A stretch of 64,000 bases of DNA from Bdellovibrionales bacterium (GTDB lineage Bacteria; Bdellovibrionota; FAC87; UBA2466). The position numbers and the translations under genes were made by a program. Numbering within the stretch: position 1 is the stretch's first letter; each line of letters begins with the position of its first letter. Positions 1 to 49,856 of the stretch are shown one piece after another. The DNA is taken from positions 1 through 64,000 of the forward strand of contig SXPJ01000103.1 in NCBI GenBank assembly GCA_005776395.1, given 5' to 3'. The notes beneath the pieces are model-generated. The model saw nothing but the letters and a program-made list of their open reading frames with translations. It did no database searches and was not told where the DNA came from.

Positions 1-531
1 GGCCTGCTGCTCGACTCCCTGCTCGCCGCACCGGCGGCCCGTGTTGTCACGATCAGCAGCCTGACGCATCGCCGCGCCACGCTGCCGATCGACGATCTGC
101 ACTGGGAGCGCGAGCGCTATTCGCGGGCCGGCGCCTACGGCCGTTCCAAGCTGGCGAATCTGATGTTCATGCTGGAACTGGACCGCCGCCTGCGTCGGCG
201 CGGAGCGGCGGCGCTCAGCGTCGCCGCGCATCCGGGCTATGCGGCCACCAATATCGGCTTCGGTGGCGGCAGCAGGACGTCCCTGTTCGGCCGCCTGATC
301 ACGATCGGCAATGTGCTGCTGGCCCAACCCGCCGCGCTGGGGGCGCTGCCGACCTTGTACGCGGCGACCGCCGCCGATGTGCAGGGCGGTGAGTATTTCG
401 GCCCGAATGGTCCGCTGCAGTTCCGCGGCTACCCGGTGCGCGTCCGCAGCAGCGCGCGGGCCCGCGACGCCGGGCTGGCGGCGCAGCTGTGGCAGGCCTC
501 GGAACGGATGACCGGCGTGCATTTCGCCTGA
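1..531 (+). CDS. Short-chain dehydrogenase/reductase, 5'-truncated
   Basis: The reading frame is open from the first base, so the N-terminal Rossmann glycine motif lies outside the window. What remains shows the SDR core: a hydrophobic strand ending in VVTISS (the catalytic-serine strand) and, about 30 residues later, YGRSK, the YxxxK catalytic pair. An HPGY segment follows, as in the retinol dehydrogenase/protochlorophyllide reductase-like branch. Such enzymes are cytosolic NAD(P)H oxidoreductases; the substrate cannot be told. Codons are strongly GC-rich, unlike everything after about base 1263. The next gene lies 70 bp downstream on the same strand. Confidence 0.8.
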   Translation, partial: GLLLDSLLAAPAARVVTISSLTHRRATLPIDDLHWERERYSRAGAYGRSKLANLMFMLELDRRLRRRGAAALSVAAHPGYAATNIGFGGGSRTSLFGRLITIGNVLLAQPAALGALPTLYAATAADVQGGEYFGPNGPLQFRGYPVRVRSSARARDAGLAAQLWQASERMTGVHFA

Positions 532-600
532 GAAACCACCGATTCGCCGCGGGCAATGGCCAGCGCTAAGCTGAACCCACTACAAGGAGGAGAGTCCCCC

Positions 601-1263
601 ATGCGTATCCCCGAGTGGCGGCTGGCGGCGCTGTGCTCGCTTGCGTTGACAGTCGGCGCCTGCGGCAGCAGCGATCTGGCCGGTGACCTGCCTCCCAACG
701 CCGCCGCCAGCGGCACTGCAACGCTGAAATGCGCCCTGCCCGCCAGCGGCAGTGAATTCGAGGCCAGGGACGCCGAGGCGCTGAACCTCGATCCCGCCGC
801 CGTCGCCGAAGCGACGCGCTACGCCAATCTCACCAACGCGGTGTCGATCCGCGTCTACCGCTACGGCTGCCTCGCCGGCACCGGCGCGCTCGATCCGCTC
901 ACCGGCGGCATTCCGAACACCGTCTGGAGCACGACCAAGGGCGTGGTCTCGCTGCTCACCGGCCGCGCGGCGCAGCTCGGTTACTTGGATCTCGACGATC
1001 CAATCGGCAAGTACGTGACCGAGGCCGACGCCGAGCACGGTGCGGTGACCATCCGGCAGATGCTGACGCAGAGCTCCGGCCTGCGCTTCGTGTGGACCGG
1101 CGACCTCAACCTCGGCAACCCGGATTCCGTGCGCTACACGCTGGCGCTGCCGTTCGACTTCGCGCCCGGCACCGAATTCACCTACGGCCAGAGCACGGTG
1201 ACCCTGCTCGCGCACACGGTGGAACGCGCGGTCGGCGAGGATCTGCAGGCCTTCGCGCAGCGT
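601..1263 (+). pseudogene. Serine hydrolase (class C beta-lactamase family) lipoprotein, 3'-truncated at a sequence junction
   Basis: ATG at 601 follows a strong AAGGAGG ribosome site at 585-591. The product begins with a lipoprotein signal (lipobox VGAC), so it should be a periplasmic or outer-membrane lipoprotein. A STTK tetrad (SxxK, nucleophilic serine and general base) and a YGQS triad (YxN equivalent) place it in the beta-lactamase/D-Ala-D-Ala carboxypeptidase/esterase superfamily. The family-like sequence ends near codon 221 (FAQR). The last nine codons up to the TGA at 1291 are no longer family-like and lie in AT-rich DNA. The C-terminal part with the KTG-type motif is missing. It is called broken because of the join described in the findings; in its source organism it is probably an intact gene. 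Confidence 0.75.
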
Positions 1264-1553
1264 ATGCCTGATACCGAAAGCGTAGGAATCTGAAATTGTG
1301 AATACGGGTTTGTGGGGCGATCTATTACTGTTGAGAAATTTAAATGGGTCTTGGGATCTGTGGGATAGTTTACTTCGGGGATAAGTGTAAATGAACTTTG
1401 CCGATTTTCTTTATCTAAATTGGTTCCGTAAGAGGTGGATAGAACTACGGTCAGTGTCTTAGGTGACTGGGCAGCTAGAATAGAGCTTGAGCTTAAAATA
1501 CAGTATAAACCCAGTGCCATTAATAATTTGAACTGCCCCTTAAACCCCGCCAT
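1264..1553 (-). pseudogene. Secreted protein, N-terminal fragment cut at the junction
   Basis: ATG at 1553 (or TTG at 1571) opens a reading frame starting with a typical signal peptide: a basic start, the hydrophobic core LLMALGLYCILSSSSI, then AAQ. About 70 mature residues follow, rich in T, S, N and P, with alternating polar and hydrophobic residues such as FTLIPEVNYP and HLNFSTVID that suggest outer-membrane beta strands. No stop codon occurs before the frame runs into the GC-rich segment at about 1263, so the C-terminal part is missing. No family was recognised. Composition agrees with the rest of the AT-rich window. No clear ribosome site was seen. Confidence 0.45.
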
Positions 1554-1772
1554 AGAGTAGTGTTTTACCAAAATTTAAAACCGAAGTCCCGCAAGTTTTA
1601 TGTATCGCGTTAACATTTCAATGACGGCATTTAAACTATATTAATTTCATGTACTTATAACATCTTGTGAAGGTGACAAATTTGGCTGTTTTTAACCTGT
1701 TTGGCTTGGACGGATAAGATTGACAGTCAGCCAATCACTTGCGATTCTTCCCCTCAACTAGGGAAAATTTTC

Positions 1773-2621
1773 ATGAACCAACCTCTTATTTTAGATGGAA
1801 AAAAAGTCGCTGAATCGGTTTATCAGAAGTTACTTTTAGAAGTTTCATTGCTCTCTTTTGTTCCACGAATTGTTTTTTTAAGGGTGGGGGAGGATCCCGC
1901 TTCGCAGTCCTATGTGAGGAGTAAAGAGAAGCGATGTCTCGAATTGGGTTTAAGGGGCGAGACAATCGTTTTTGCGGAATTTGTAAGTGAAGATGAACTC
2001 ATTGATAAAATACTTACTTTAAATCGTGATAAGGATGTGAATGGAATCTTAGTTCAGCTACCCCTACCTAAGCACATGGATAAGGCAAAGGTTTTGCGAA
2101 GTATCGATCCTTTAAAGGATGTGGATGGATTACATCCTGAAAATGCAGGCCTTTTACTTCAAGGGAAACCCAGATTCATTCCCTGCACCCCGATTGGAAT
2201 AGTGGAGATGTTGAAGTTCTATCAAATTCCTATCGAAGGTAAGCGGGTTATTGTGATGGGGCGAAGTGAAATTGTGGGGCGTCCAATGGCTCAGCTTTTT
2301 CTTAACTACAATGCTACAGTGACTGTATGTCACTCTAAGACTCAGAACTTAAAAGAGGAGCTTCAGAGAGCTGAAGTTCTAGTCGTGGCCATTGGAAAAA
2401 CTCAATTTGTAAAGGCGGACATGATATCCCCTGGAGTGACTATCATTGATGTTGGAATTAACCGAGTCGATGGAAAAATTGTAGGTGATGTCGATTTTGA
2501 TTCAGTCAGTAGTAAAGCCGCAGCTATTTCACCTGTGCCTGGGGGGGTTGGCCCTATGACGATTGCGATGTTGATGAAAAACTTATCTCTTGCAGCTACT
2601 TTGCAATCTCAAAAGAATTAA
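1773..2621 (+). CDS. folD: Bifunctional methylenetetrahydrofolate dehydrogenase/cyclohydrolase FolD
   Basis: This cytosolic one-carbon enzyme interconverts 5,10-methylene-, methenyl- and 10-formyl-tetrahydrofolate. The 282-residue length is normal for FolD. Visible signatures are the N-terminal catalytic Y-x3-K (YVRSK) after LRVGEDPASQ, the glutamine-proline patch VQLPLPKH, DGLHPENAG, PCTP, the NADP-binding VMGRSEIVGRPMA and the C-terminal PVPGGVGPMT. The ATG at 1773 is preferred over a TTG 72 bp upstream, because the extra residues are not FolD-like and the weak site TAGGGA lies about 10 bp before the ATG. The gene converges on coaE with a 4-bp overlap of the 3' ends. Confidence 0.96.
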   Translation: MNQPLILDGKKVAESVYQKLLLEVSLLSFVPRIVFLRVGEDPASQSYVRSKEKRCLELGLRGETIVFAEFVSEDELIDKILTLNRDKDVNGILVQLPLPKHMDKAKVLRSIDPLKDVDGLHPENAGLLLQGKPRFIPCTPIGIVEMLKFYQIPIEGKRVIVMGRSEIVGRPMAQLFLNYNATVTVCHSKTQNLKEELQRAEVLVVAIGKTQFVKADMISPGVTIIDVGINRVDGKIVGDVDFDSVSSKAAAISPVPGGVGPMTIAMLMKNLSLAATLQSQKN

Positions 2622-3241
2622 ATCAGACGGTCTTTTTTCCATTGAGTGATTAGAAGTTCTACCGATTTCTTTAGTTCCTTCTCATTGCTCTCATTCCAAA
2701 TTAAATGGGTAGCCACAGATTTACGGATTTCATCTGAAGTTTGAGATTTTAAAATATCGTTAAAAAGTTCGGGGGCCATTAGATCTCTAAGCATAACTCT
2801 TTGACGCCGAATCTCGGGGCTTGCCATGATAACAATGAGCCGTGGAAAGAGTTTAGTATGGTTATGTTCAATCAAAAGAGCCGCCTCACACAGAACAAGT
2901 TTCGCCCCTTCTTTAGCTTTTGTTTCGGCTTTTAAGTTAAAGAGCTCCCAAATTTTGGGGTGAAGTATTTTCTCTAAAGCTTGGCGCTTTTTAGAATCTT
3001 TGAAAATGATTTCTCGAATGGCTTGTCTATTAATTTTTTCCTTTAAGAAAATCTCTTCTCCAAATAGTTGGCGAAGATCTTTATGAACTGAAGTGTCGGA
3101 ATCTAAAATGGCTCTGCCCAAATAGTCCAGATTAATGACACTAATGCCAGCCTCTTCAAAAAAACGGGCGGCTATAGATTTTCCAGAGCCAATTCCTCCG
3201 GTCAGCCCCCATATCTGGATCTTTTTTGTGAGATTAATCAT
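2618..3241 (-). CDS. coaE: Dephospho-CoA kinase CoaE
   Basis: CoaE catalyses the last step of coenzyme A synthesis, ATP-dependent phosphorylation of the 3'-hydroxyl of dephospho-CoA. The product is 207 residues, the usual size. The P-loop GLTGGIGSGKS lies near residues 12-22 and is followed by INLDYLGR, matching the conserved D-x-x-x-R segment. LHPKIW and the C-terminal RQRVMLRD lid region also fit. The ATG at 3241 sits just upstream of the P-loop at the expected distance. The gene ends inside the stop region of folD, so there is no room for a terminator between the two convergent genes. Confidence 0.95.
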   Translation of the reverse strand: MINLTKKIQIWGLTGGIGSGKSIAARFFEEAGISVINLDYLGRAILDSDTSVHKDLRQLFGEEIFLKEKINRQAIREIIFKDSKKRQALEKILHPKIWELFNLKAETKAKEGAKLVLCEAALLIEHNHTKLFPRLIVIMASPEIRRQRVMLRDLMAPELFNDILKSQTSDEIRKSVATHLIWNESNEKELKKSVELLITQWKKDRLI

Positions 3242-3335
3242 GGCTCTATTCTAACTTCTTTTGGGGGTAAAAAAAGATGAAAATAAGAGGAGGACTTCAG
3301 GATAAAGTTATGACCTTCTGCATTTTACTTTCCGA

Positions 3336-3583
3336 TTATGAAATGGGAAGGAGAATCAAGATTCTCTTTTGCTCGCAGTGGAATTTAATAATATCGATAA
3401 GCTCACTCTTAATCTTGAAAGCTTGATAATCAATCCCACAGTCCTCTGCTAACTTTTCAAGGAATTGGGCTTTTTATTTTTTTCTTTCATATCGATATTC
3501 CCTTAATTCGTTTGCGAATAATCTCTTTGTTCTTCTCCTTGGGTTTATTAGTCAATCGTAACGATATCAACAGGTTCTCAATA
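3336..3583 (-). pseudogene. Possible decayed short gene, unrecognised
   Basis: The ~390 bp between coaE and the next gene hold no intact gene. On the reverse strand two coding-looking pieces lie in different frames. The first contains KEKNKEIIRKRIKGI and ends in TGA near 3493. The second contains EKLAEDCGIDYQAFKIK and ends in TAA at 3336-3338. Between them are runs of A where a frameshift could have occurred. The second piece is helical and charged, somewhat like a small DNA-binding or antitoxin protein, but no family can be named. On the other strand an AGAGGAGG-like stretch at 3286-3293 resembles a ribosome site but leads to no long frame. Confidence 0.25.
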
Positions 3584-3633
3584 TTAATTCTTTTTTGCTA
3601 AGGTTTTGCTTAAGAAGGTTCGAAGTATATGAC

Positions 3634-4455
3634 ATGTCAAGTTACTCATTGGGATTCCATACTCTCATTTATTTGTGGGGGGGTGCGATGTGTTGCGGAT
3701 TGGGTTTCGGCTGGTCTGCAGCCAATGAGATCCACACCCTCGATATCTCCACTCTCAAAACCTCAAACAGACCTCAGGGAGCAGCCTTTAGAATCGGTGG
3801 TGTTAATTCGAATGAAGTCATTCGTTCCCTCACTGAACTAAATGGAATCTCCATTCGGGTGTTAGAGGCAAGAATGAGACCTGGGAATGAGTTTAATAGA
3901 CTTTCCGAAGAAGTTCGAAGAGACATTGGATCTTTCAACCTGTCAAATGGCGGGTTTCTAGGCAGGACAGAAAGTCTATTGGAAGTATTGGCCAGAGATA
4001 ACACATTTGTGGTCACTACAAGGCGATTGACTCATCAGAGGTTAGCTGCACCTCTCATTGAATTCATGCGTCTTTGGAGGGATGGGCAACGAAGAGGTGA
4101 AAATTTTCGGCCCATTATAGTAACTTATCCTCCGGCTGGACCCGGGGTTAGACCAAGAAGATTTGATATTAACATGTCTTGTACTCGTGGATATCAAGCT
4201 TCTCCTTTTTCGGATGAAGCGCAAATGCAGCATCAAGATACACAAAATGCGAGAGATTGTTACCAAGGTGCTTGGCAAACAGCGGGAGGTTGTAGTTTAC
4301 ATATTACAAACCTAGATACTCGTAAAACCTTAACAACGTTTGATATGATCCCTTTTCTTATTCACCGCTATGGTTTTTACGAAGGAATGGGCACTCCTGT
4401 TGGTTATCGCCTTCCTCCGGAAAAAATATTAGAAGTTTTGGATTTTCTGAATTAG
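3634..4455 (+). CDS. Secreted protein of unknown function
   Basis: This is a 273-residue product with an N-terminal hydrophobic export segment (LIYLWGGAMCCGLGFGW) followed by SAANE, consistent with a cleavable signal. The mature part is soluble and mixed in character, with four cysteines in the C-terminal half (MSCTRG, ARDCYQ, GGCSLH region) that could form disulfides in the periplasm. No family or catalytic motif was recognised. An upstream TTG at 3595 would add 13 basic residues; the ATG at 3634 gives a cleaner signal peptide. The gene stands alone, with relic-filled spacers on both sides. Confidence 0.55.
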   Translation: MSSYSLGFHTLIYLWGGAMCCGLGFGWSAANEIHTLDISTLKTSNRPQGAAFRIGGVNSNEVIRSLTELNGISIRVLEARMRPGNEFNRLSEEVRRDIGSFNLSNGGFLGRTESLLEVLARDNTFVVTTRRLTHQRLAAPLIEFMRLWRDGQRRGENFRPIIVTYPPAGPGVRPRRFDINMSCTRGYQASPFSDEAQMQHQDTQNARDCYQGAWQTAGGCSLHITNLDTRKTLTTFDMIPFLIHRYGFYEGMGTPVGYRLPPEKILEVLDFLN

Positions 4456-31865: not shown

Positions 31866-34800
31866 ATGTTCGAAAGATTGTCATCTGTCGTGAGAGATCA
31901 TCTTAGGTGGAAGAGATTCATTTTTGGAGATATTGTTTCTATTTCATTGCTCTTTATGTTTTGGAGCCCCTCTAGTCAGGGGCGAAATCCCTTCCAGGAT
32001 CATGATAGTCCCGTAGTTGATTCAGATAATACTACGTCATTCGAAACGGGCAATGAGCCGAGATTAGGGAGTGAAGCGCCACAGCCTACTTCTTCGAACG
32101 AGCGGGGAGCACAGGAAACTCGAACGGCGCCCCTCCCGCCCCATGGAAATTCCGTTTTGCCGGTAAATTCGCCGGTAGTTCAACCACGGCCCGGGTTAAC
32201 TAGTGTTTCCGACTTTATCGCGAGGTATGAGCCTTCGACAGGCGTTTTCCAAGCAGCTCTTGATAGAGCCGCAAACTTAAGTGAGGCGAGAAATAACCCG
32301 ACAACACTTCAAAACTTCGCCGCAAATCCTGTGTATTGGGCTACTCACGGACGTGGGCATGCGATCGATATCGCGAACCATGCAGTGGGGCTTCACAATC
32401 AACTAAGAACCTCTGGATTTTACAACCAACTACCACATGTTGGAAGCATGTCCCAATCCGTACGTACCGAGCTTTCCCGTTCCATTCCTGAATTAGGAGC
32501 GCTCTATGGTCTTACCCATGACATGGGGATGTATGGAACAACACTGGCTCACCGAGATAGGCATTTTCTTGTCGCTCCTATGATGGCCTTTGGTTATGTT
32601 CCCCATGAAATGCGAAACGAAGCCCGAGGGTTTCACGATATGCTGGAACGGCTGGGAAATGATCCCAATAGCGCCATCATGAGGGAAATCAACCAATTAC
32701 TTGAATCCGGAGCCTACCCAGGTGTTTCAGAAGCAGATGTGAGGCAAGGCAGAGCCAATGCCTTAAACGCAAAACGACGACTTCTTGCTGAGGTTGTATT
32801 CGGCTCGGTAAGTCATGGCCGAATCGCCGGTGAATTTGCAAATCTTGGCTTTAATCTGGAAACGGCGGAGGGAAGAGCTACCGTTGCAGCCCGAAGAGAT
32901 TTCTATTTAAGAGCCTTAAGAGACGCAAGTCCTGAAGGATCTCATGTGCGCATGCTTGAACATGATCTAGCTCAAGCAAGAACGAGATCCGGTTCCACAC
33001 GGGAAGTCATCGCGGGGCTAGAAGCAAGGCTCGTGGAAACTCGGCGGGAGGCGAGTGCGGTTCATCAGAATGAAAGGGTTAATCTCAATTCGTTTTATGG
33101 TGGCGCCGAAAATGTGAATCGCCTTTTTATGCTTTGGAACGATCCGCAATATATCGCTACCCTTCCAAGTTCCCAGCGCGAGGCCCTCACCCGTTTTGGA
33201 TCTTTTGTCGCTGAAGGGGAACGTCTTTTGAGCGCAGCGGATGGGAATAGACAACGGGGGCCTCTCCTTGTGGGGGCCGGAAATACTCAGATAGTGAACA
33301 CGCCCAGTGGCACGATGATGGTTGTGACTGATCATACGAATGGCCGCCGCGTTTATGCGTCGATTCAAAGTGAGTTTCAAACCGGAGAGGCTAATCTTCT
33401 CAGAGGTATGGTGGATCCCCAGGGCCGTTGGGTCATGCCGGTTGTGTCGGGCCGATTTACGGCCGAAGAAATTCCACGCCAGGCGAATGCTGCGGCAATG
33501 ATTGCCGTCGATACTTTCAAGAACATGGCGCGTGCGATTCCCTCTCTCGGAAGTCAACCGCTCCGCCTCGTCGTTACGGGAGAAAACCCAGTTTTCTATC
33601 AAGTGTTGAATACCGCTTTAGAAAGCCATTTTACTTCTATAAATGCGGAGCGTGCTCGGCAAGGTCGGCCCGGTTTTACTTTTGAGTTAGTGACTCCGGA
33701 GGCAGCTCTTGCAGGCGCGGCATCTGCCACTCGCCCTAGGATTGTGCATGTTCCAGGAATTCAAGGAGGTCCTCCAATTGGAAACATAACCTCGAATCCC
33801 GAATCGGGGCGCCTCCAGTCGGGTCGAGTATTAACGGGACCAGAAAGAACAGCTTTAGCGACAGGCATCGAAGGAATGGGGTTTGGGAGACAATCTTGGT
33901 TATTGAATCAGGTTTTGACCCCTGAGGCTCGCCACGTGACGGTCCCATCTGGCAATATCTTGATCTCCGCGGGTTCTCCTCCCGGAGCGGTTTACTTTCT
34001 TACGAGCGGGACGGTCGAAATAGCTCACGCGGGGGCAGGGGCACAACCTATTCGACTGACGGCAACCCCCGGTAACCCTATTCCCATTGGCGAAAATTCA
34101 GCCCTTTCTCGACAGGGACGAGACGCGACGGTCCGAGTGATTTCAAATGCTGAAGTCATCATGATCCCAAGCCATGTAGCGCAAGGTTGGACTGTCAATG
34201 ATCTTGTGATCCCAAACAATGAAATCCCGGCCTATGTAGAAAGGATGTACTCTAGAAGGGGAACTAACCCTTCCCCTTCTTCAAATTCCCCTCCTGTCGC
34301 CGGTAGTGCTCAGAGAGAACCCTCTCCGCTGACAACTGCGGAGCTTGCGGGTGTCCAGCCCGGATCCAGAGCTCCTGAGCAAATGGTAAGAACTCGGCAT
34401 GCATATCAAACCCTGGGTATCGGGCAAGTGACACCCGTGACCGAAACAGTACGTAATACCGTCGGCGCAACCAACGAGACCGCCTACCGGGCTACGCGTC
34501 TATTGGATGCGCTAGGCATGAATCACGATTCGCACTTCCGCAGAACCCTCGAAGGAAATGGAGTCCTTGAGTTTTCAATTAATGAATCCAGTGCGACCAA
34601 CAATGCTCGACAAACGGCTCGAAACATTGTCGAAGCCCACAGGTATCTATCGCAGCTCATGATCTTAGATCCGGTAAGATACGGAGGGCTTAAGTTGCCA
34701 GATATTCGAATAGAAGGCACCGGAGAGAACGCAAGACTTATTGTTTCCATGAGTCAGCAAGGCGCTACTCCTGTCGAACAAATGGCAAATAGGGGGCAAC

Positions 34801-37800
34801 TGATCGTTAGCTTACTCGAACTTGCACCGAATTACCTCAATGAGGCGAACCAGGGTCGGAATGCTCGAATGAGCCCCGAGGCTGCACGCGCCGTACAAAC
34901 TATTGTCCAGAATCAGACACGCCTTAACGCTCAGAACACTTTTTTTAATGCAGTTGTGGCGGAGATGAATAGATCCGGAGGTCTTCCCACAGATGCCATG
35001 ACAAGATTACCCGAATCCGCAATCGCCAGTGCTGCCAATGCGGAAGCAAATCGATTATCCCAATTGATAGAAGGAAGAGCGAGAACTTTGCCAGCTCTTA
35101 AAGAGGAAATACGGAGATTGATGGCGGTGGCAACGGATGCGGAACTCACTCGTTTGGAGGCATTAGAAAGGACTGGATCTCAAAGGGCAATCGAAAGCGA
35201 GTTGCGAAACCAAATTGCGCGGAATAGGGATTTATACCAAAAGTTGCGGCCTGAGCATACCTTTATGCAAAACGCTTTGGAGGCACAGGCCGCGCAAAAT
35301 GAAAGAGCACGTTTGGGGGGGCTCACCACCCCTGAAGCGATGCGAAACGAACTTGTGGCGCAAGCCACAAGGGCGACGGGGCCGGAGCAGAGGCGTTTGA
35401 ATGACTTAGCAAGTGCTAGAACGCCGAATCAGCAGGTCCAAGCGGAGATTCAGAGTCAAATCTTGCGCGAGACTAATCTAATGACGAATCGATTGAATGA
35501 AATGAATAACATACGGGCTCAGACTATTCGCGAAAATGGGATCGGAATGCAACGTGAATTGGCCCGTCAACAGCAACAGTATCAACAGGGTTTAGACACC
35601 CATTTTAGAAACTCAAACGCCGGGGCTGTGATGAATTTAATCGGACTCGTTCATGGAATACGAGCACTCACCCAGCCACATGTAGAATCCTCGAACACCC
35701 CACCGTGGGAAAGAAATTTCCGTGCAATTGCCCCTTTTGCCCAAATTGGGTTCGCAACCTCGGGTTTAACGACCGATGTTCTCTTAAGAAACACACCGAA
35801 TCCTTTTGCGGTAGGTAGTAGCCGTCTTGTTCGTTTGGGTGGACATCTGAGTGCGGCCACCGGCACCGCCACGATGGGGTTGAGTGCGATTACCGAGGGA
35901 ATCGCATTGAATAATGCCCTTTTTCACGATGAGAATCGAGATGGTTTTCGAGGTTCTCGAATCGCCAATTCGGCTTTTCTAAGCACTGCCAATACCATCG
36001 GCGCTTTAGGCCAGGCGACAGCTTGGATAGCGCCAGCCGGAAGCGCCACAGGCCGTATTGGCGGATTGATAGCGGGAAGTATCGTGCTTCCGGTGCTTGT
36101 CGCTTACGAAGCTGGGCGAACGATCGTGGCCGCCAACGAGATGATGCAAGCTCAAGCAGACTTCACTATTGGATTCAACGACATGGTACAATCGATAAAT
36201 AGACCTACTTCCGTTATAGGTACACCTGGTATATTTTCGAGCTACGTAGACATTCCGGGCTTAAGACCTGTAGCCTCAGACTATCGACACCTAAGAAACT
36301 GGATTTCAGTTGTGAGTACTGATCCGCGTCGCATGAGGAATAGAGATCGCACTCCGATGAATTGGGAAGACCTCCTACACAATAACCCGGAAAATTTTGT
36401 TAACAATAGTAGAATTTTTGCTGATTGGAACAGGAATAGAGTTAGGAATTTAGAAAGCTCTCCACTGCTCTCAGGTTTTCGAAATTCGTTAAACTCTACG
36501 CCACTAGGACAAGCTACAATGTGGTTAACCCAACCTAGTCATAATAATTTTGAAACTCAAAGAGATGCTATGCTTCAGGAGTTAAATAACCGTAGAGAAT
36601 TGGTAACTCTAGGAAGCCATGCTCAAAACGAAATGTGGGGTAATTCAGAAAATGGATGGCGTAGTTTTATGGCCCGTGACGCCGATTATCTACGACTAAT
36701 ACGTCCGTTAGAGGCCCAATGGGCTCCCCAGGTAGCCGAATTCAATAGACTTCGCCAAATTCGCCAAGGGATGCGGCCTGGCCAACAAAGAGATCAGTTG
36801 ATTCAACTGGGAATGTCGCATGATACTAATGATCCTCTTCGCAGACAGTTTGACGCGGCGAATGTCGAGGCGGCAGCAGAAGATCAACGTAGGTTACAGT
36901 TAGCCACTTCGCTTGCGCAACGGTATATGAACGCGTCGGGAAGAAACAGAGGGGCAGTATTAGACGAAATTCGGGAGCTTTTGGGAATTAGTCGAGACGA
37001 TTGGGATTGGTCGAATTCCAATGCAGCAAATAGCAATTTACCCCTAGTAAATACTGTCACGGCGCAGGCCAATAGAGGACAGGAGGCCTTCACGGAGTTT
37101 CTAAGGCGGCAGATTATTGCGAGGAGCGCTCACCAAACCGTGATGCTTCACTTTGCCGGCCGCTTAAGCGTCATTCGCGAAAGAGAAATCATGGAACCGC
37201 TATTGGCAAATGAGCGCCGTGTGGTGGAGCAGCATAATACGATGCAATCTGCGGTGGAGGCCTATTACCAGAGCATTATAAATGCACGATCTGGTGGACA
37301 GACCGATCAATCAGCGGCCGCGGTGAACGCGGCATTGACCCGTGTTAACGAACAGTTTCGAATATTGCAAGACAGAGCCTATGCAGAATCACCTTTGCCC
37401 ATATCACAAACTGCCAGAGCTAACAATGAAGCTGCGTTAATCACTGCATTAACGGCCGATCGAAGAGCGATAGAGGAAGGCCATTCTGTAGAATTCAGGG
37501 GAAGGGAACGGGTCCGTAATTATCTTCGCGATCATTATACAAGTGAAGCCGAAAGGCATTTTCTTCGGAATATCGATTTTGTAAGACGGGTAGAAATCGA
37601 AGATCTTCCTGAACGCCATTTATTGGCACTTTCAATGAGTCGAGAAAGATATATCGAACGAAATATGGAATTTGCTCCAGAGCAAATGGTGGCCCAATCG
37701 AGGAGAGAAACAACTCAATATGCCGCGAATCTTATAGGTGTTAATAGAGAGAGAGAGCAGCTTCCTACAGCCCCAGCGGTGAATGGCGCAATAGAACAAA

Positions 37801-46597: not shown

Positions 46598-46636
46598 GTG
46601 AGGGCCTATCTAGCTAAGATAGGCTCTCACTTTTTT
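46598..46636 (+). terminator. Rho-independent terminator
   Basis: GTGAGGGCCTATCT and AGATAGGCTCTCAC form a near-perfect 14-bp stem with a short loop, followed by TTTTTT. It ends the forward gene and overlaps the last codons of the convergent HAMP gene. Confidence 0.85.
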
Positions 46637-47096
46637 CTTTGAGTTCTAAAGTGTCGCTGCGAATTTTATTCACGATAGTTTCAAACTCTTTAAACTCATC
46701 GTGATCCCCTAAACGCAATTTGTGACTCCAATCCCCTCGTGAGTAGAGAATAAGTTGACGTTTAATCGTGGCAATTGGATTTGTGAGTCTTCGTACCATT
46801 AAGAAGGCTGCAACAAACATCGCTAATATTGAAAATAAAAAAAGGATAAAAAGCCAAGTTTCAAGAATCCGTTGTTCATGTCTCACGATTTGAACCACTT
46901 GGGCTGAGATCCCTAACTCATCCCCCATAAAGAGGTTGTAGTTGCGTTGAATGAACCAAGCCATAACGAAGATCATCACAAGGGAGGTGAATCCGCCGGT
47001 CAAGGTTAAGTACATAACGTATTTTAACTGAACAGGCAGGGCTCTTAATTTTCTTGGGACGCCCAAAGTTGCTGAGTGAGAGTTTTCGCGTGGCAT
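46614..47096 (-). CDS. Two-helix membrane protein with HAMP domain
   Basis: The 160-residue product has two transmembrane helices (about residues 28-50 and 80-102), separated by ~30 periplasmic residues, then a HAMP-like linker: RRLTNPIATIKRQL, then SHKLRLGDHDEFKEFETIVNKI. There is no kinase, cyclase or chemotaxis output domain, so it may signal through partners. Its ATG is 4 bp after the stop of the ArsA-like gene at 47101, and it is the last gene of a four-gene operon. Its stop codon lies inside the terminator hairpin of the convergent gene. Confidence 0.65.
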   Translation of the reverse strand: MPRENSHSATLGVPRKLRALPVQLKYVMYLTLTGGFTSLVMIFVMAWFIQRNYNLFMGDELGISAQVVQIVRHEQRILETWLFILFLFSILAMFVAAFLMVRRLTNPIATIKRQLILYSRGDWSHKLRLGDHDEFKEFETIVNKIRSDTLELKEKSESLS

Positions 47097-47100
47097 GGCT

Positions 47101-48156
47101 TTAGAATACCAGTTTTTTTCCTATTTGAGAAAGGGTCTCAAGATCGTGAATGGGCCCTGATCTCTTTTCTAATTTAATTTGAGGAATCTTATTTAAGTTG
47201 GAATCAAATTGAGAAATCCAATATTGCTGCTGAGCGACTAACTCACTTCGGTAAGTTAACACCTTTTCGATCTCCTCGCGTTCCTGTTTGGGAAGTTCAA
47301 TGGATGGAGGGATCTCCTTAGGAAATTCTTTTTCAATTCGATTTAGAATAACACCAGAAAGAGGGATCTCTTTTTCTTTGAGTGCTTTTATAAAATCTAG
47401 AGATTCAGTAAATCTAACTTCGCTCGGATAGGTCACAAGAAAAAATCCGGTAGCTTGGCTTTTTAAAAGCTGAATAACTTCAAGGTTTCTATCTCTAAAT
47501 CCTGTATGCATTCCTTCGAGATCATCCATGACCTCGGCTAAAGCTTTGAAAAAGTCGTTTCCAAAAAGTTTTTCCAGAAGTTTTATGGCTATTTTGGTTC
47601 CATGGCGAAAAAGTGAGAAAGGGGTCTTAGTTTTTTGAAACCAACGCAAAACTGAGTTGTCCATGAAGTTAGCGAGTTTTTGAGGGGCATCTAGAAGATC
47701 CAAAGCATTTTGTGAGGGGGGGGTATCTACAACAATTTTCTCAAACGAAGAATCTTTTGCGAACTCTAACAGTCGTTCCATGGCCGCATATTCGTGACTA
47801 CCCCCTAAGCTCTCCACCATAATTCGATAGAGACGGTTATTTAAAATTTTATCTTTCTGTTTTTCTGAACCCGCAAATCTTGTAATGACCTTATCAAAAT
47901 ATCTTTGAGTATCGAGCATTGAGGCAAAGAGTTTAGACTCTTGGGTATGAGGGAGGGGAACGTTTTGTAGGTCGCTTGAGAAGGTTTTAAATCCCAGCGC
48001 TTGAGCTAATCTTTTGGCCGGATCAACCGTAAGAACTATTGTTCTATGGCCTTCTAGAGCTAGTTGAGTTCCCAAAGCTGCAGCTACGGTGGTTTTCCCC
48101 ACACCTCCGGGGCCTCCCACTAAAAAGATCCTCTTTTCTTTCCAAATTGGGTTCAC
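47101..48156 (-). CDS. ArsA/Get3-family ATPase, paralogue 1 (signature lysine missing)
   Basis: This 351-residue deviant-Walker-A ATPase shows GGPGGVGKTT at ~14-23, LTVDPAKRLAQALG (the DPA switch), DTPPSQNALDLLDAP (switch II-like) and VTYPSEVRFTES. In the canonical family the loop reads GKGGVGKT, where the first Lys reaches across the dimer; here that Lys is Pro. Family members drive arsenite pumps or chaperone tail-anchored proteins; bacterial paired versions are mostly uncharacterised. It follows its paralogue with no spacer. No arsB or arsenic regulator is near, so arsenic transport is unlikely. Confidence 0.85.
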   Translation of the reverse strand: MNPIWKEKRIFLVGGPGGVGKTTVAAALGTQLALEGHRTIVLTVDPAKRLAQALGFKTFSSDLQNVPLPHTQESKLFASMLDTQRYFDKVITRFAGSEKQKDKILNNRLYRIMVESLGGSHEYAAMERLLEFAKDSSFEKIVVDTPPSQNALDLLDAPQKLANFMDNSVLRWFQKTKTPFSLFRHGTKIAIKLLEKLFGNDFFKALAEVMDDLEGMHTGFRDRNLEVIQLLKSQATGFFLVTYPSEVRFTESLDFIKALKEKEIPLSGVILNRIEKEFPKEIPPSIELPKQEREEIEKVLTYRSELVAQQQYWISQFDSNLNKIPQIKLEKRSGPIHDLETLSQIGKKLVF

Positions 48157-49023
48157 TTAACTCTCCAAAGAATCGGCAATTAGCTCAATAGTTTCTTTCA
48201 AAACTTCGGTTGTAAATCTAGGAATCTGTTTCATCATTAGAGGTAGATCTTTAGCCTTTTCAATTGATATTTGCTCTCTTTCTAATCTCAACCTATGGTC
48301 TTCAAGGCACTCTTTAATGTTAGGGGGAAGTTTTTTTTGCATGTGTGTGGGCAAGAAAAACTTAGGCGTGCATTGGTTGATCCATAAAAAGCCCAATGGA
48401 AATTTCCCTAGCTTCAATAGCTGATCAATAAACTGCTCACTTTCCACAAGTGGCATCTCTTCAGGAAGAGTGACCAGATCGAGGCGAGTGTAAGGATCCA
48501 TGAACATGTCACAAATATTTCCTGCTTGCCTATGAACGAAACCAGTTGCGAACATTTTTTCTATCCCCATCGGGGATTTGAAAAATGAAAGGGCATGGCC
48601 TGTGGCTGGAAGGTCCACAATGAGTACATCTTGTTGTCCTCGATCAAAAAGGTCCCAAACTTTGCCCGCGATGACAGTTTCTGAGAGACCAGGAGCCACC
48701 TCAATGAACGCTTTAAGGACTTTGTTCTCAAAAATTACATCTAAAATTTTTTCAAATTTTAAGGTTTTTAAAGCATATTCTTTAAAACAGATGGCGGCGT
48801 CCAGTTGTTCCCAATGAATTCCAAAAGATTTTAAAGCTAAAGGTTCAAGTGATGTTTCAAAGGGGTTCCAACTGACAAATCTTACTTTTCGTTTCTGACG
48901 GGAAAGGGCCAAAGCCGTACCCCAAGCGATTGCAGTTTTCCCCACTCCACCTTTGCCGGTAAAAAAGATAAGCTTTCGTTTTAAAGAATCTGCCAGGAAA
49001 GAATGTGTCGAAGAGGAATTCAC
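48157..49023 (-). CDS. ArsA/Get3-family ATPase, paralogue 2 (altered DPA switch)
   Basis: The 288-residue product has an intact deviant Walker A, GKGGVGKTA (~23-31), including the signature lysine that is missing from the downstream partner. The position of the usual DPA motif reads SWNPFETSLEPL, so the switch I-like Asp is replaced by Asn. DLPATGHALSFFKSP corresponds to switch II. It lacks the extra C-terminal part of paralogue 1. ATG at 49023 overlaps the lipase-like gene by 4 bp. The complementary losses suggest an obligate heterodimer with the 47101 product. Confidence 0.83.
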   Translation of the reverse strand: MNSSSTHSFLADSLKRKLIFFTGKGGVGKTAIAWGTALALSRQKRKVRFVSWNPFETSLEPLALKSFGIHWEQLDAAICFKEYALKTLKFEKILDVIFENKVLKAFIEVAPGLSETVIAGKVWDLFDRGQQDVLIVDLPATGHALSFFKSPMGIEKMFATGFVHRQAGNICDMFMDPYTRLDLVTLPEEMPLVESEQFIDQLLKLGKFPLGFLWINQCTPKFFLPTHMQKKLPPNIKECLEDHRLRLEREQISIEKAKDLPLMMKQIPRFTTEVLKETIELIADSLES

Positions 49024-49856
49024 AAGCGAATGATTGTATCACTAGATTTAATGTCTTTCGACCCTTTGAACTTAAAGAGTTGTTTAGGGTTTTGATTTCG
49101 AGAAGGGGAGGGCATCATCTCTTCATTATTTAAATGAGAAAGAATGATTTCAAGAACCCGTTTAGAAAATAAAAGGCCTGCATGGCCCACATGGGATAGA
49201 TGAATATTTCTAACCCCCTCCCACCAGGTGCAATCTTTGGGTCGAATGACAATATCTAAGTCTCCAGAAACAGCAACGGCTCGGGTAAATTTAGGGGCAG
49301 GACACCGATTTAAAAGTTCAATCGTTCGACTTTGAGGGGTCAGTTCTCTAATGTGAGAAATAATGGAGTATTTTGACCATTCAGTTCCTCGATGAGGGGT
49401 TCCTAAGGTAATGAGGTTTCGCACCAATCCATCCCCTCCTAAAAGTTGAACGAAATAACGGGCAATAACTCCACCCATGGAGTGGGCTACGATGTCCACC
49501 TGGGGAGTCCCATGTTTTTTTATCAGGAGTCGAGTTTCCCGAGCCACCTGTTCAGCCAACCGGGGAATGGGGTGAATACTGGTGAGAAGATTAACCTCTT
49601 TGAATTGTCTAAAACCTTTTGAGTAAAGGCGTTGTTTTAGCCATGCAAAAGTGCTGCGGTTGTGAAAAATCCCGTGAATAAAGACAATGGGTAGTTTAGG
49701 GCTCGATTGGCGAAAAGAAAGTGAAGGCAAAGTCGGTAGCGATTTTGATACTAGCCCCAAAGGATAAAGTTCATAGGTCAAAATAGAGGCTGCGGATTCT
49801 CGGGCAATATCCCAGCCCAATCGAGAGGCTTTATAAAGTGGATGTTTAAGCTTCAT
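49020..49856 (-). CDS. Alpha/beta hydrolase, PGAP1/lipase-like
   Basis: The 278-residue product shows VFIHGIFHN (oxyanion-hole HG), the nucleophile elbow AHSMGG with Ser at ~126, the acid in SGDLDIVI, and the catalytic His in HVGHAGLL. TLGTPHRGTEW after the nucleophile is typical of lipase class 2/PGAP1-like esterases acting on acyl chains or GPI-type lipids. No signal peptide is clear, so it may be cytosolic or membrane-associated. It is the first gene of the operon with the two ArsA-like ATPases and the HAMP protein. Confidence 0.8.
   Translation of the reverse strand: MKLKHPLYKASRLGWDIARESAASILTYELYPLGLVSKSLPTLPSLSFRQSSPKLPIVFIHGIFHNRSTFAWLKQRLYSKGFRQFKEVNLLTSIHPIPRLAEQVARETRLLIKKHGTPQVDIVAHSMGGVIARYFVQLLGGDGLVRNLITLGTPHRGTEWSKYSIISHIRELTPQSRTIELLNRCPAPKFTRAVAVSGDLDIVIRPKDCTWWEGVRNIHLSHVGHAGLLFSKRVLEIILSHLNNEEMMPSPSRNQNPKQLFKFKGSKDIKSSDTIIRL

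What the first reader, a model, noticed from the sequence alone, without database searches (positions are those of the whole stretch)
47101..49023. Paired ArsA/Get3 ATPases with complementary active-site losses
One paralogue has GPGGVGKT (signature Lys replaced by Pro) but a normal DPA switch. The other has GKGGVGKT but NPF instead of DPA. In deviant-Walker-A ATPases the signature Lys acts across the dimer, so the pair looks built as an obligate asymmetric heterodimer with one working site type. This differs from homodimeric Get3 and from the fused two-domain ArsA.
Basis: partly seen in the sequence, partly recalled or inferred. Interest (0 to 1): 0.65.

Follow-up and report, generated by a model that had tools for sequence, protein, structure and literature searches.

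The report
BagAB-type Get3-like ATPase gene pair
Two neighbouring genes encode sister ATPases that appear to work only as a mixed pair, each supplying the catalytic part the other has lost; the same arrangement is already known from the tuberculosis bacterium's BagA-BagB complex, and here it is shown to hold in every one of 140 pairs examined from several bacterial phyla.

Summary
Gene A (47101-48156, minus) has GPGGVGKT plus DPA. Gene B (48157-49023, minus) has GKGGVGKT plus NPF. They abut in frame (TAA then GTG). Their nearest solved relatives are the two chains of the M. tuberculosis BagA-BagB complex (A = BagB, B = BagA), which show the same split: BagB GAGGVGKT + DPA, BagA GKGGTGKS without DPA. 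So this is a new member of a known kind.

In 140 complete pairs (own phylum, Actinomycetota, Myxococcota, others) A never has the signature Lys and always has DP[A/S]; B always has the signature Lys. A pattern for A with Lys gave no true hit in 439 genomes. A and B are two single-origin sister clades. In one family (11/11 genomes) B lost its own Walker-A Lys yet kept the signature Lys, as expected if B mainly donates that Lys. A homologous pair read through as one chain folds confidently (pTM 0.87) into an ArsA-like sandwich; the window's pair, without a linker, did not dock (pTM 0.54), and no Lys-to-nucleotide distance could be measured.

New lead: in ten families of the phylum the pair is followed by gshA.

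The parts
47101..48156 (-). Gene A: BagB-type Get3/ArsA-fold ATPase (351 aa), supplies the complete nucleotide site but no signature Lys
   Evidence: ORF; best PDB match 6bs3_B (M. tuberculosis BagB) E 3.8e-51; NF053621 BagB 246 bits E 4.7e-73 (below the equivalog cut-off 521); PF02374 104 bits
48091..48114 (-). A P-loop GPGGVGKT; signature position Pro16 (codon 48109-48111), Walker-A Lys21
   Evidence: position 16 is S/T/P/A/G/C and never Lys in 149 A proteins, Lys21 in 149/149
48016..48024 (-). A switch I Asp45-Pro46-Ala47, the intact catalytic DPA
   Evidence: DP[A/S] present in 149/149 A proteins
47716..47727 (-). A switch II DTPP (residues 144-147)
   Evidence: invariant in alignment A1
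48157..49023 (-). Gene B: BagA-type partner (288 aa), proposed donor of the signature Lys, its own site crippled
   Evidence: ORF; best PDB match 6bs3_A (Rv3679, BagA) E 4.4e-13; NF053622 BagA E 6.3e-20 (72 bits, cut-off 400); PF02374 75 bits
48934..48957 (-). B P-loop GKGGVGKT; signature Lys24 (codon 48952-48954), Walker-A Lys29
   Evidence: Lys24 in 140/140 B proteins; Lys29 is Arg in 7/140 and in 11/11 genomes of family f13 examined
48859..48867 (-). B switch I Asn53-Pro54-Phe55 in place of Asp-Pro-Ala
   Evidence: no DP at all in 129 of 140 B proteins. Asp to Asn here corresponds to yeast Get3 D57N, which binds but does not hydrolyse ATP (PMC12506534)
48595..48615 (-). B switch II DLPATGH (residues 137-143)
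   Evidence: D137, G142 invariant and H143 nearly so in alignment A2
49020..49856 (-). Upstream gene: alpha/beta-hydrolase (lipase/esterase-like), stop overlaps B start (GTGA)
   Evidence: ORF; PF02089, DUF676 and Lipase_2 above their cut-offs; conserved upstream of B in the own family and order
46614..47096 (-). Downstream gene: 160-aa protein with two hydrophobic segments and a HAMP-like region, 4 bp after A
   Evidence: ORF; weak match to the segment before the kinase of WalK/BaeS (no Pfam match); conserved downstream of A in 11 other genomes of the own family/order and, weakly, in family f7

Best explanation
The two genes encode a BagAB-type, Get3-like A:B heterodimer that works as an asymmetric ATP-driven machine with one hydrolytic site. 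That site is built from A's P-loop, catalytic Asp45 and switch II plus the signature Lys24 that B inserts across the interface. The second composite site, on B, lacks both its catalytic Asp (Asn53, like the ATP-trapping Get3 D57N) and the Lys that A should donate (Pro16), so it at most holds nucleotide as a structural element. Shown here: the residues, their strict reciprocal conservation over 140 pairs, one ancient origin of each clade, and a confident ArsA-like two-domain arrangement predicted for a homologous pair. Inferred: that this pair forms the heterodimer, that Lys24 reaches A's nucleotide, that only site A hydrolyses, and that opening and closing of the sandwich drives a client-handling cycle at or near the membrane. 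The client is not known.
For: Motifs. Nearest solved relatives are the two chains of one complex, 6BS3, which show the same split in the alignments printed there. 70/70 own-phylum loci examined hold an adjacent A-B pair. 79/79 A genes from named genomes lack the signature Lys and every intact B has it. Census: A signature position S74 T27 P26 A15 G6 C1, B signature position K140. Pattern test: the A motif is found in 202/241 own-phylum genomes, with Lys at the signature position only once, and that one is a true ArsA half; 0/198 in the Mycobacterium phylum; 134/146 Myxococcota have the motif and none of the listed matches has Lys. Family f13: B is GKGG[VT]GR in 11/11 genomes, so the Walker-A Lys is lost and the signature Lys kept. 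Tree: A and B are each one clade (SH-aLRT 98), sisters, apart from Get3/ArsA. Structure: fused homologous pair L133 pTM 0.87, ArsA closed form TMt 0.71 over both domains, 6BS3 chains TMt 0.84 and 0.81. The signature Lys acts across the dimer in ParA (PMC5393062); D57 is essential for hydrolysis in Get3 (PMC12506534). A canonical Get3 in one of the same genomes keeps both motifs (L162).
Against: The window's own two proteins fused without a linker were not docked (pTM 0.54, ArsA rmsd 27). No distance from Lys24 to the nucleotide could be measured and no homodimer was predicted for comparison. B keeps its Walker-A Lys in 133/140 proteins, so its site probably still binds nucleotide and matters; from memory, Whitaker et al. 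2020 report that both ATP-binding motifs are needed in M. tuberculosis (abstract recalled, paper not held). Family f4 B proteins keep an Asp-Pro in switch I, so the loss on B is uneven. The scores to BagA and BagB are below NCBIfam's equivalog cut-offs.
Confidence: 0.78

Rival explanations
1. A and B form a heterodimer, but B is only a scaffold or regulatory pseudo-ATPase. Its signature Lys is kept for P-loop structure or for its own nucleotide binding, not to complete A's site.
For: GKGG is a common P-loop consensus; B keeps Walker-A Lys in 133/140; no direct view of the interface of the window pair.
Against: In 11/11 genomes of family f13 and in one actinomycete (L149) B lost the Walker-A Lys but kept the signature Lys, while A tolerates S, T, P, A, G or C at its own signature position without losing the fold. 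So Lys24 is conserved for more than local P-loop structure.
Confidence: 0.12
2. The proteins act as separate homodimers (A:A and B:B), the pair being merely co-transcribed.
For: Related Get3 proteins are homodimers; the window fusion model did not dock.
Against: Each homodimer would lack one catalytic element in both sites; 140/140 reciprocal split; solved M. tuberculosis relatives are deposited as one A plus B complex; L133 fusion docks at pTM 0.87; two f13 genomes of lower completeness lack both genes together.
Confidence: 0.04
3. Both sites still turn over, B using another acidic residue in its altered switch I, so the pair is asymmetric in rate rather than one-sited.
For: Many B proteins have Glu or Asp near the lost Asp (for example VELD, VEVE); B keeps the switch II DxPxxGH.
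Against: No acidic residue is conserved at that place across B, the window has Asn, and B's site also lacks the trans Lys because A has none.
Confidence: 0.05
4. An ordinary split ArsA arsenite pump ATPase or a homodimeric Get3.
For: Pfam family ArsA_ATPase.
Against: A has no Cys at all and neither protein has the Get3 CxxC; true ArsA and Get3 fall outside the A+B clade; no arsenic genes seen next to the pair.
Confidence: 0.01

Closest known systems
BagA-BagB (Rv3679-Rv3680), bacterial Get3-like A and B of Mycobacterium tuberculosis, PDB 6BS3/6BS4/6BS5
   Same: Adjacent gene pair in the same order; A is closest to BagB, B to BagA; same reciprocal motif losses (BagB GAGGVGKT + DPA; BagA GKGGTGKS, no DPA); actinomycete pair in the same two clades of the tree
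   Different: About 37% identity for A to BagB and weaker for B; below the NCBIfam equivalog cut-offs; B is shorter (288 against 340 aa); different operon (lipase-like and HAMP genes)
Get3/TRC40
   Same: Fold (TM about 0.7 to Get3 chains), deviant Walker A, switch I/II layout
   Different: Get3 keeps signature Lys and catalytic Asp in one chain, is a homodimer and has a CxxC zinc motif; the first and last are not met here
ArsA
   Same: Two related ATPase domains in one pseudo-dimer; the L133 fusion model superposes on both ArsA domains (TMt 0.71)
   Different: ArsA is one polypeptide, both halves keep GKGGVGKT, and it binds arsenite through Cys; A here has no Cys
ParA/MinD deviant-Walker-A ATPases
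   Same: Signature Lys inserted across the dimer (PMC5393062)
   Different: Homodimers; both chains keep the Lys; only short P-loop similarity

Membership tests
BagAB-type heterodimeric Get3-like ATPases | Two adjacent Get3-like paralogues, one BagA-like and one BagB-like | tested here: met
BagAB-type heterodimeric Get3-like ATPases | BagB side without signature Lys but with DPA; BagA side with signature Lys but without DPA | tested here: met
BagAB-type heterodimeric Get3-like ATPases | Falls in the same two clades as the actinomycete pair, apart from Get3/ArsA | tested here: met
   SH-aLRT 98 for each clade
BagAB-type heterodimeric Get3-like ATPases | Physical heterodimer | tested here: inconclusive
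   homologous pair L133 pTM 0.87; window pair without linker pTM 0.54
NCBIfam equivalogs BagA (NF053622) and BagB (NF053621) | Score above the curated equivalog cut-off | tested here: not met
   72 against 400 and 246 against 521 bits; so a member of the wider clade, not of the mycobacterial equivalog
Get3/TRC40 | Signature Lys and catalytic Asp in the same chain | tested here: not met
Get3/TRC40 | CxxC zinc motif at the dimer interface | tested here: not met
   no CxxC in A or B
Get3/TRC40 | Binding and delivery of tail-anchored proteins | not testable with these tools
   needs biochemistry
ArsA | Two ATPase domains in one polypeptide, both with GKGGVGKT | tested here: not met
   separate genes with a TAA stop between; A is GPGGVGKT
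ArsA | Cys-based arsenite site | tested here: not met
   A has no Cys

The most novel reading that the evidence does not exclude
The BagAB pair is a widespread bacterial one-stroke Get3-like machine, fixed before the divergence of several phyla, that serves thiol or electrophile-stress physiology. It is linked to gshA (glutamate-cysteine ligase) through conserved operons in most families of the window's phylum, and in the window's own order, which has lost gshA, it is rewired to a lipase-like and a HAMP membrane protein.
Probability: 0.25. Interest if true: 0.6.

Novelty: new member of a known kind. Interest (0 to 1): 0.4.

Why it matters
It turns a single solved case (mycobacterial BagAB) into a general rule: a Get3-like ATPase pair with reciprocal catalytic losses, held without exception across several phyla. 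Family f13, where B has lost its own ATP-gripping Lys but not the Lys it is proposed to donate, is a natural mutant that makes the one-site model testable. The conserved gshA neighbourhood gives a first concrete lead, outside mycobacteria, to the unknown client or pathway of BagAB.

Tried and rejected
(1) Heterodimer of the window's own pair, read through the single TAA: both halves good (pLDDT 84.8) but not docked (pTM 0.54; ArsA rmsd 27); I attribute this to the one-residue linker, since L133 with about 45 linker residues docks. (2) An alignment of fused, A-only and B-only rows (A3) was discarded because MAFFT placed B rows on the A half. (3) A possible counter-example with Lys in an A-like motif (G189, L169) turned out to be a two-domain ArsA. 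(4) Apparent lone A genes (L084, L092, L108) proved to have an unlinked B elsewhere in the genome. (5) The original BagAB papers (PMC6597400, PMC8404711) are not held, so what they say about the asymmetry could not be read. (6) The first counting of A in named loci used a pattern that excluded Lys; it was repeated without that restriction, with the same result, 79/79.

Full report
WHAT IS THERE. Gene A (47101-48156) and gene B (48157-49023) lie on the minus strand in the order B then A; B ends in TAA and A starts with GTG at the next base, in the same frame, with a GGAG a few bases upstream. A reads GPGGVGKT and DPA; B reads GKGGVGKT and NPF. An upstream alpha/beta-hydrolase gene (49020-49856) overlaps the start of B by four bases, and a 160-aa protein with a HAMP-like region (46614-47096) follows A after four bases, so the four genes look like one operon.

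NEAREST RELATIVES. A finds M. tuberculosis BagB (6bs3_B, E 3.8e-51), B finds BagA (6bs3_A, E 4.4e-13); NCBIfam ranks the BagB and BagA models first, below their equivalog cut-offs. The alignments printed show that BagB itself has GAGGVGKT with DPA and BagA has GKGGTGKS; the Mycobacterium BagA-type protein in L119 reads VEVEGRQG where DPA would be. The pair is therefore a BagAB-type pair, and the reciprocal loss is a property of a complex that already has a crystal structure.

CO-OCCURRENCE. PF02374 was searched in 78 genomes including the own one; 70 had a match at 1e-10, and every one of the 70 loci examined holds an adjacent B-A pair. In all 70, A has S/T/P/G/A at the signature position and DP[A/S]; every B that is not truncated by a contig end or a broken frame has the signature Lys. 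A scan of named genomes gave 79 further A genes, from Actinomycetota, Myxococcota, Thermodesulfobacteriota, Acidobacteriota and a few gammaproteobacterial MAGs, all without the Lys, with every intact partner B GKGG. Census over 149 A and 140 B: A position S74, T27, P26, A15, G6, C1; B position K140. Three genomes without an adjacent B have it elsewhere, again with GKGG.

REFUTATION TEST. A degenerate DNA pattern for the A motif was run with any codon or with a Lys codon at the signature position. Any codon: 202 of 241 own-phylum genomes and 134 of 146 Myxococcota genomes. Lys codon: 1 of 241 and 0 of 198 in the phylum of Mycobacterium. The single hit is the second half of a 594-residue ArsA, which groups with E. 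coli ArsA in the tree. The exact pattern misses A genes with an indel between the two motifs, so these are strict but not exhaustive counts.

NATURAL EXPERIMENT. In family f13, B reads GKGG[VT]GR[TS] in 11 of 11 genomes examined: its own Walker-A Lys is gone, the signature Lys is not. One actinomycete (L149) shows the same. A's Walker-A Lys is invariant (149/149). The conservation thus follows the composite site A(P-loop, Asp)+B(Lys), not each chain's own site.

ORIGIN. A tree of 40 A, 40 B and 6 Get3/ArsA rows puts A and B in one clade each (SH-aLRT 98), sisters to each other. The duplication and the split of catalytic residues most simply date from before the spread of the pair over these phyla. 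The tree is a quick search and several end branches are long.

STRUCTURE. Because the genes abut in frame, the window pair was folded as one chain with the stop read as Gly: both halves are good (pLDDT 84.8) and match 6BS3 chains, but their relative placement is not determined (pTM 0.54; ArsA rmsd 27). A homologous actinomycete pair (L133) with an in-frame spacer gave pLDDT 87.2 and pTM 0.87 with a disordered linker (residues 332-372); it superposes on both domains of closed ArsA (TMt 0.71, rmsd 7.3) and on BagB and BagA (0.84, 0.81). This supports the sandwich arrangement for the family.

MECHANISM. In ParA, the signature Lys of one subunit enters the other's site and stimulates hydrolysis (PMC5393062). 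In Get3, Asp57 of switch I is essential for hydrolysis and D57N traps ATP (PMC12506534). B carries Asn at that place. Hence one composite site is complete and the other lacks both elements. I infer one ATP turned over per dimer cycle, with B's site at most holding nucleotide.

FUNCTION LEADS. [quoted passage not shown] In the window's phylum the operon is usually B-A-(TPR)-(EI24/CysZ-like)-gshA: gshA lies within about 2 kb downstream of A in sampled genomes of ten families (f5, f6, f7, f8, f9, f12, f14, f15, f16, f17), often with a divergent trigger-factor gene upstream. In f1/f2 (own family and order) gshA was not found anywhere in five genomes, with six positive genomes in the same search, and the neighbours are instead lipase-like and HAMP genes. 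The f4 and f13 genomes tested have gshA elsewhere. None of 65 actinomycete, myxococcal and other named loci outside the Bdellovibrio group with enough flank showed gshA downstream. This association is suggestive, not shown to be functional.

IDENTITY OF THE HOST. G068 contig C14 has the same length (1,326,452) as the Bdellovibrio sp. UBA4095 contig found, so the window's phylum is that of Bdellovibrio; the window's genome itself is unnamed.

Noticed in passing
L183, L182, L186, L191, L128, L135, L111, L057, L055 (downstream of A): gshA (PF08886), often with a TPR and an EI24/CysZ-like gene between, follows the bagAB pair in ten families of the phylum; a trigger-factor gene lies divergently upstream in several.
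   Followed up: partly
window 46614-47096: 160-aa protein with two hydrophobic segments and a HAMP-like region, no kinase domain, conserved directly after gene A in the own order; a possible membrane partner.
   Followed up: partly
L038, L045, L050, L053, L060, L065, L193-L197: Family f13 B proteins have GKGG[VT]GR: Walker-A Lys to Arg with the signature Lys kept, in 11/11 genomes.
   Followed up: yes
L160/L166 (Polyangiaceae genome G078); Myxococcota genomes: A second, distinct A-B pair (GGGGVGKT + DPA with GKGG partner); many Myxococcota carry two A-type genes.
   Followed up: partly
L013 (G054): B gene is interrupted (1 TGA, 2 TAA in the frame; two pieces in different frames); assembly error or a broken gene.
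   Followed up: no
L106: Contig of a MAG named Bifidobacterium breve whose A and B group with a Solirubrobacterales MAG (SH-aLRT 99 and 96); the organism name is probably wrong.
   Followed up: no
window 1-4000 and 32001-36000: G+C of 0.49 and 0.51 against about 0.40 elsewhere; no Rfam family matches anywhere in the window.
   Followed up: no
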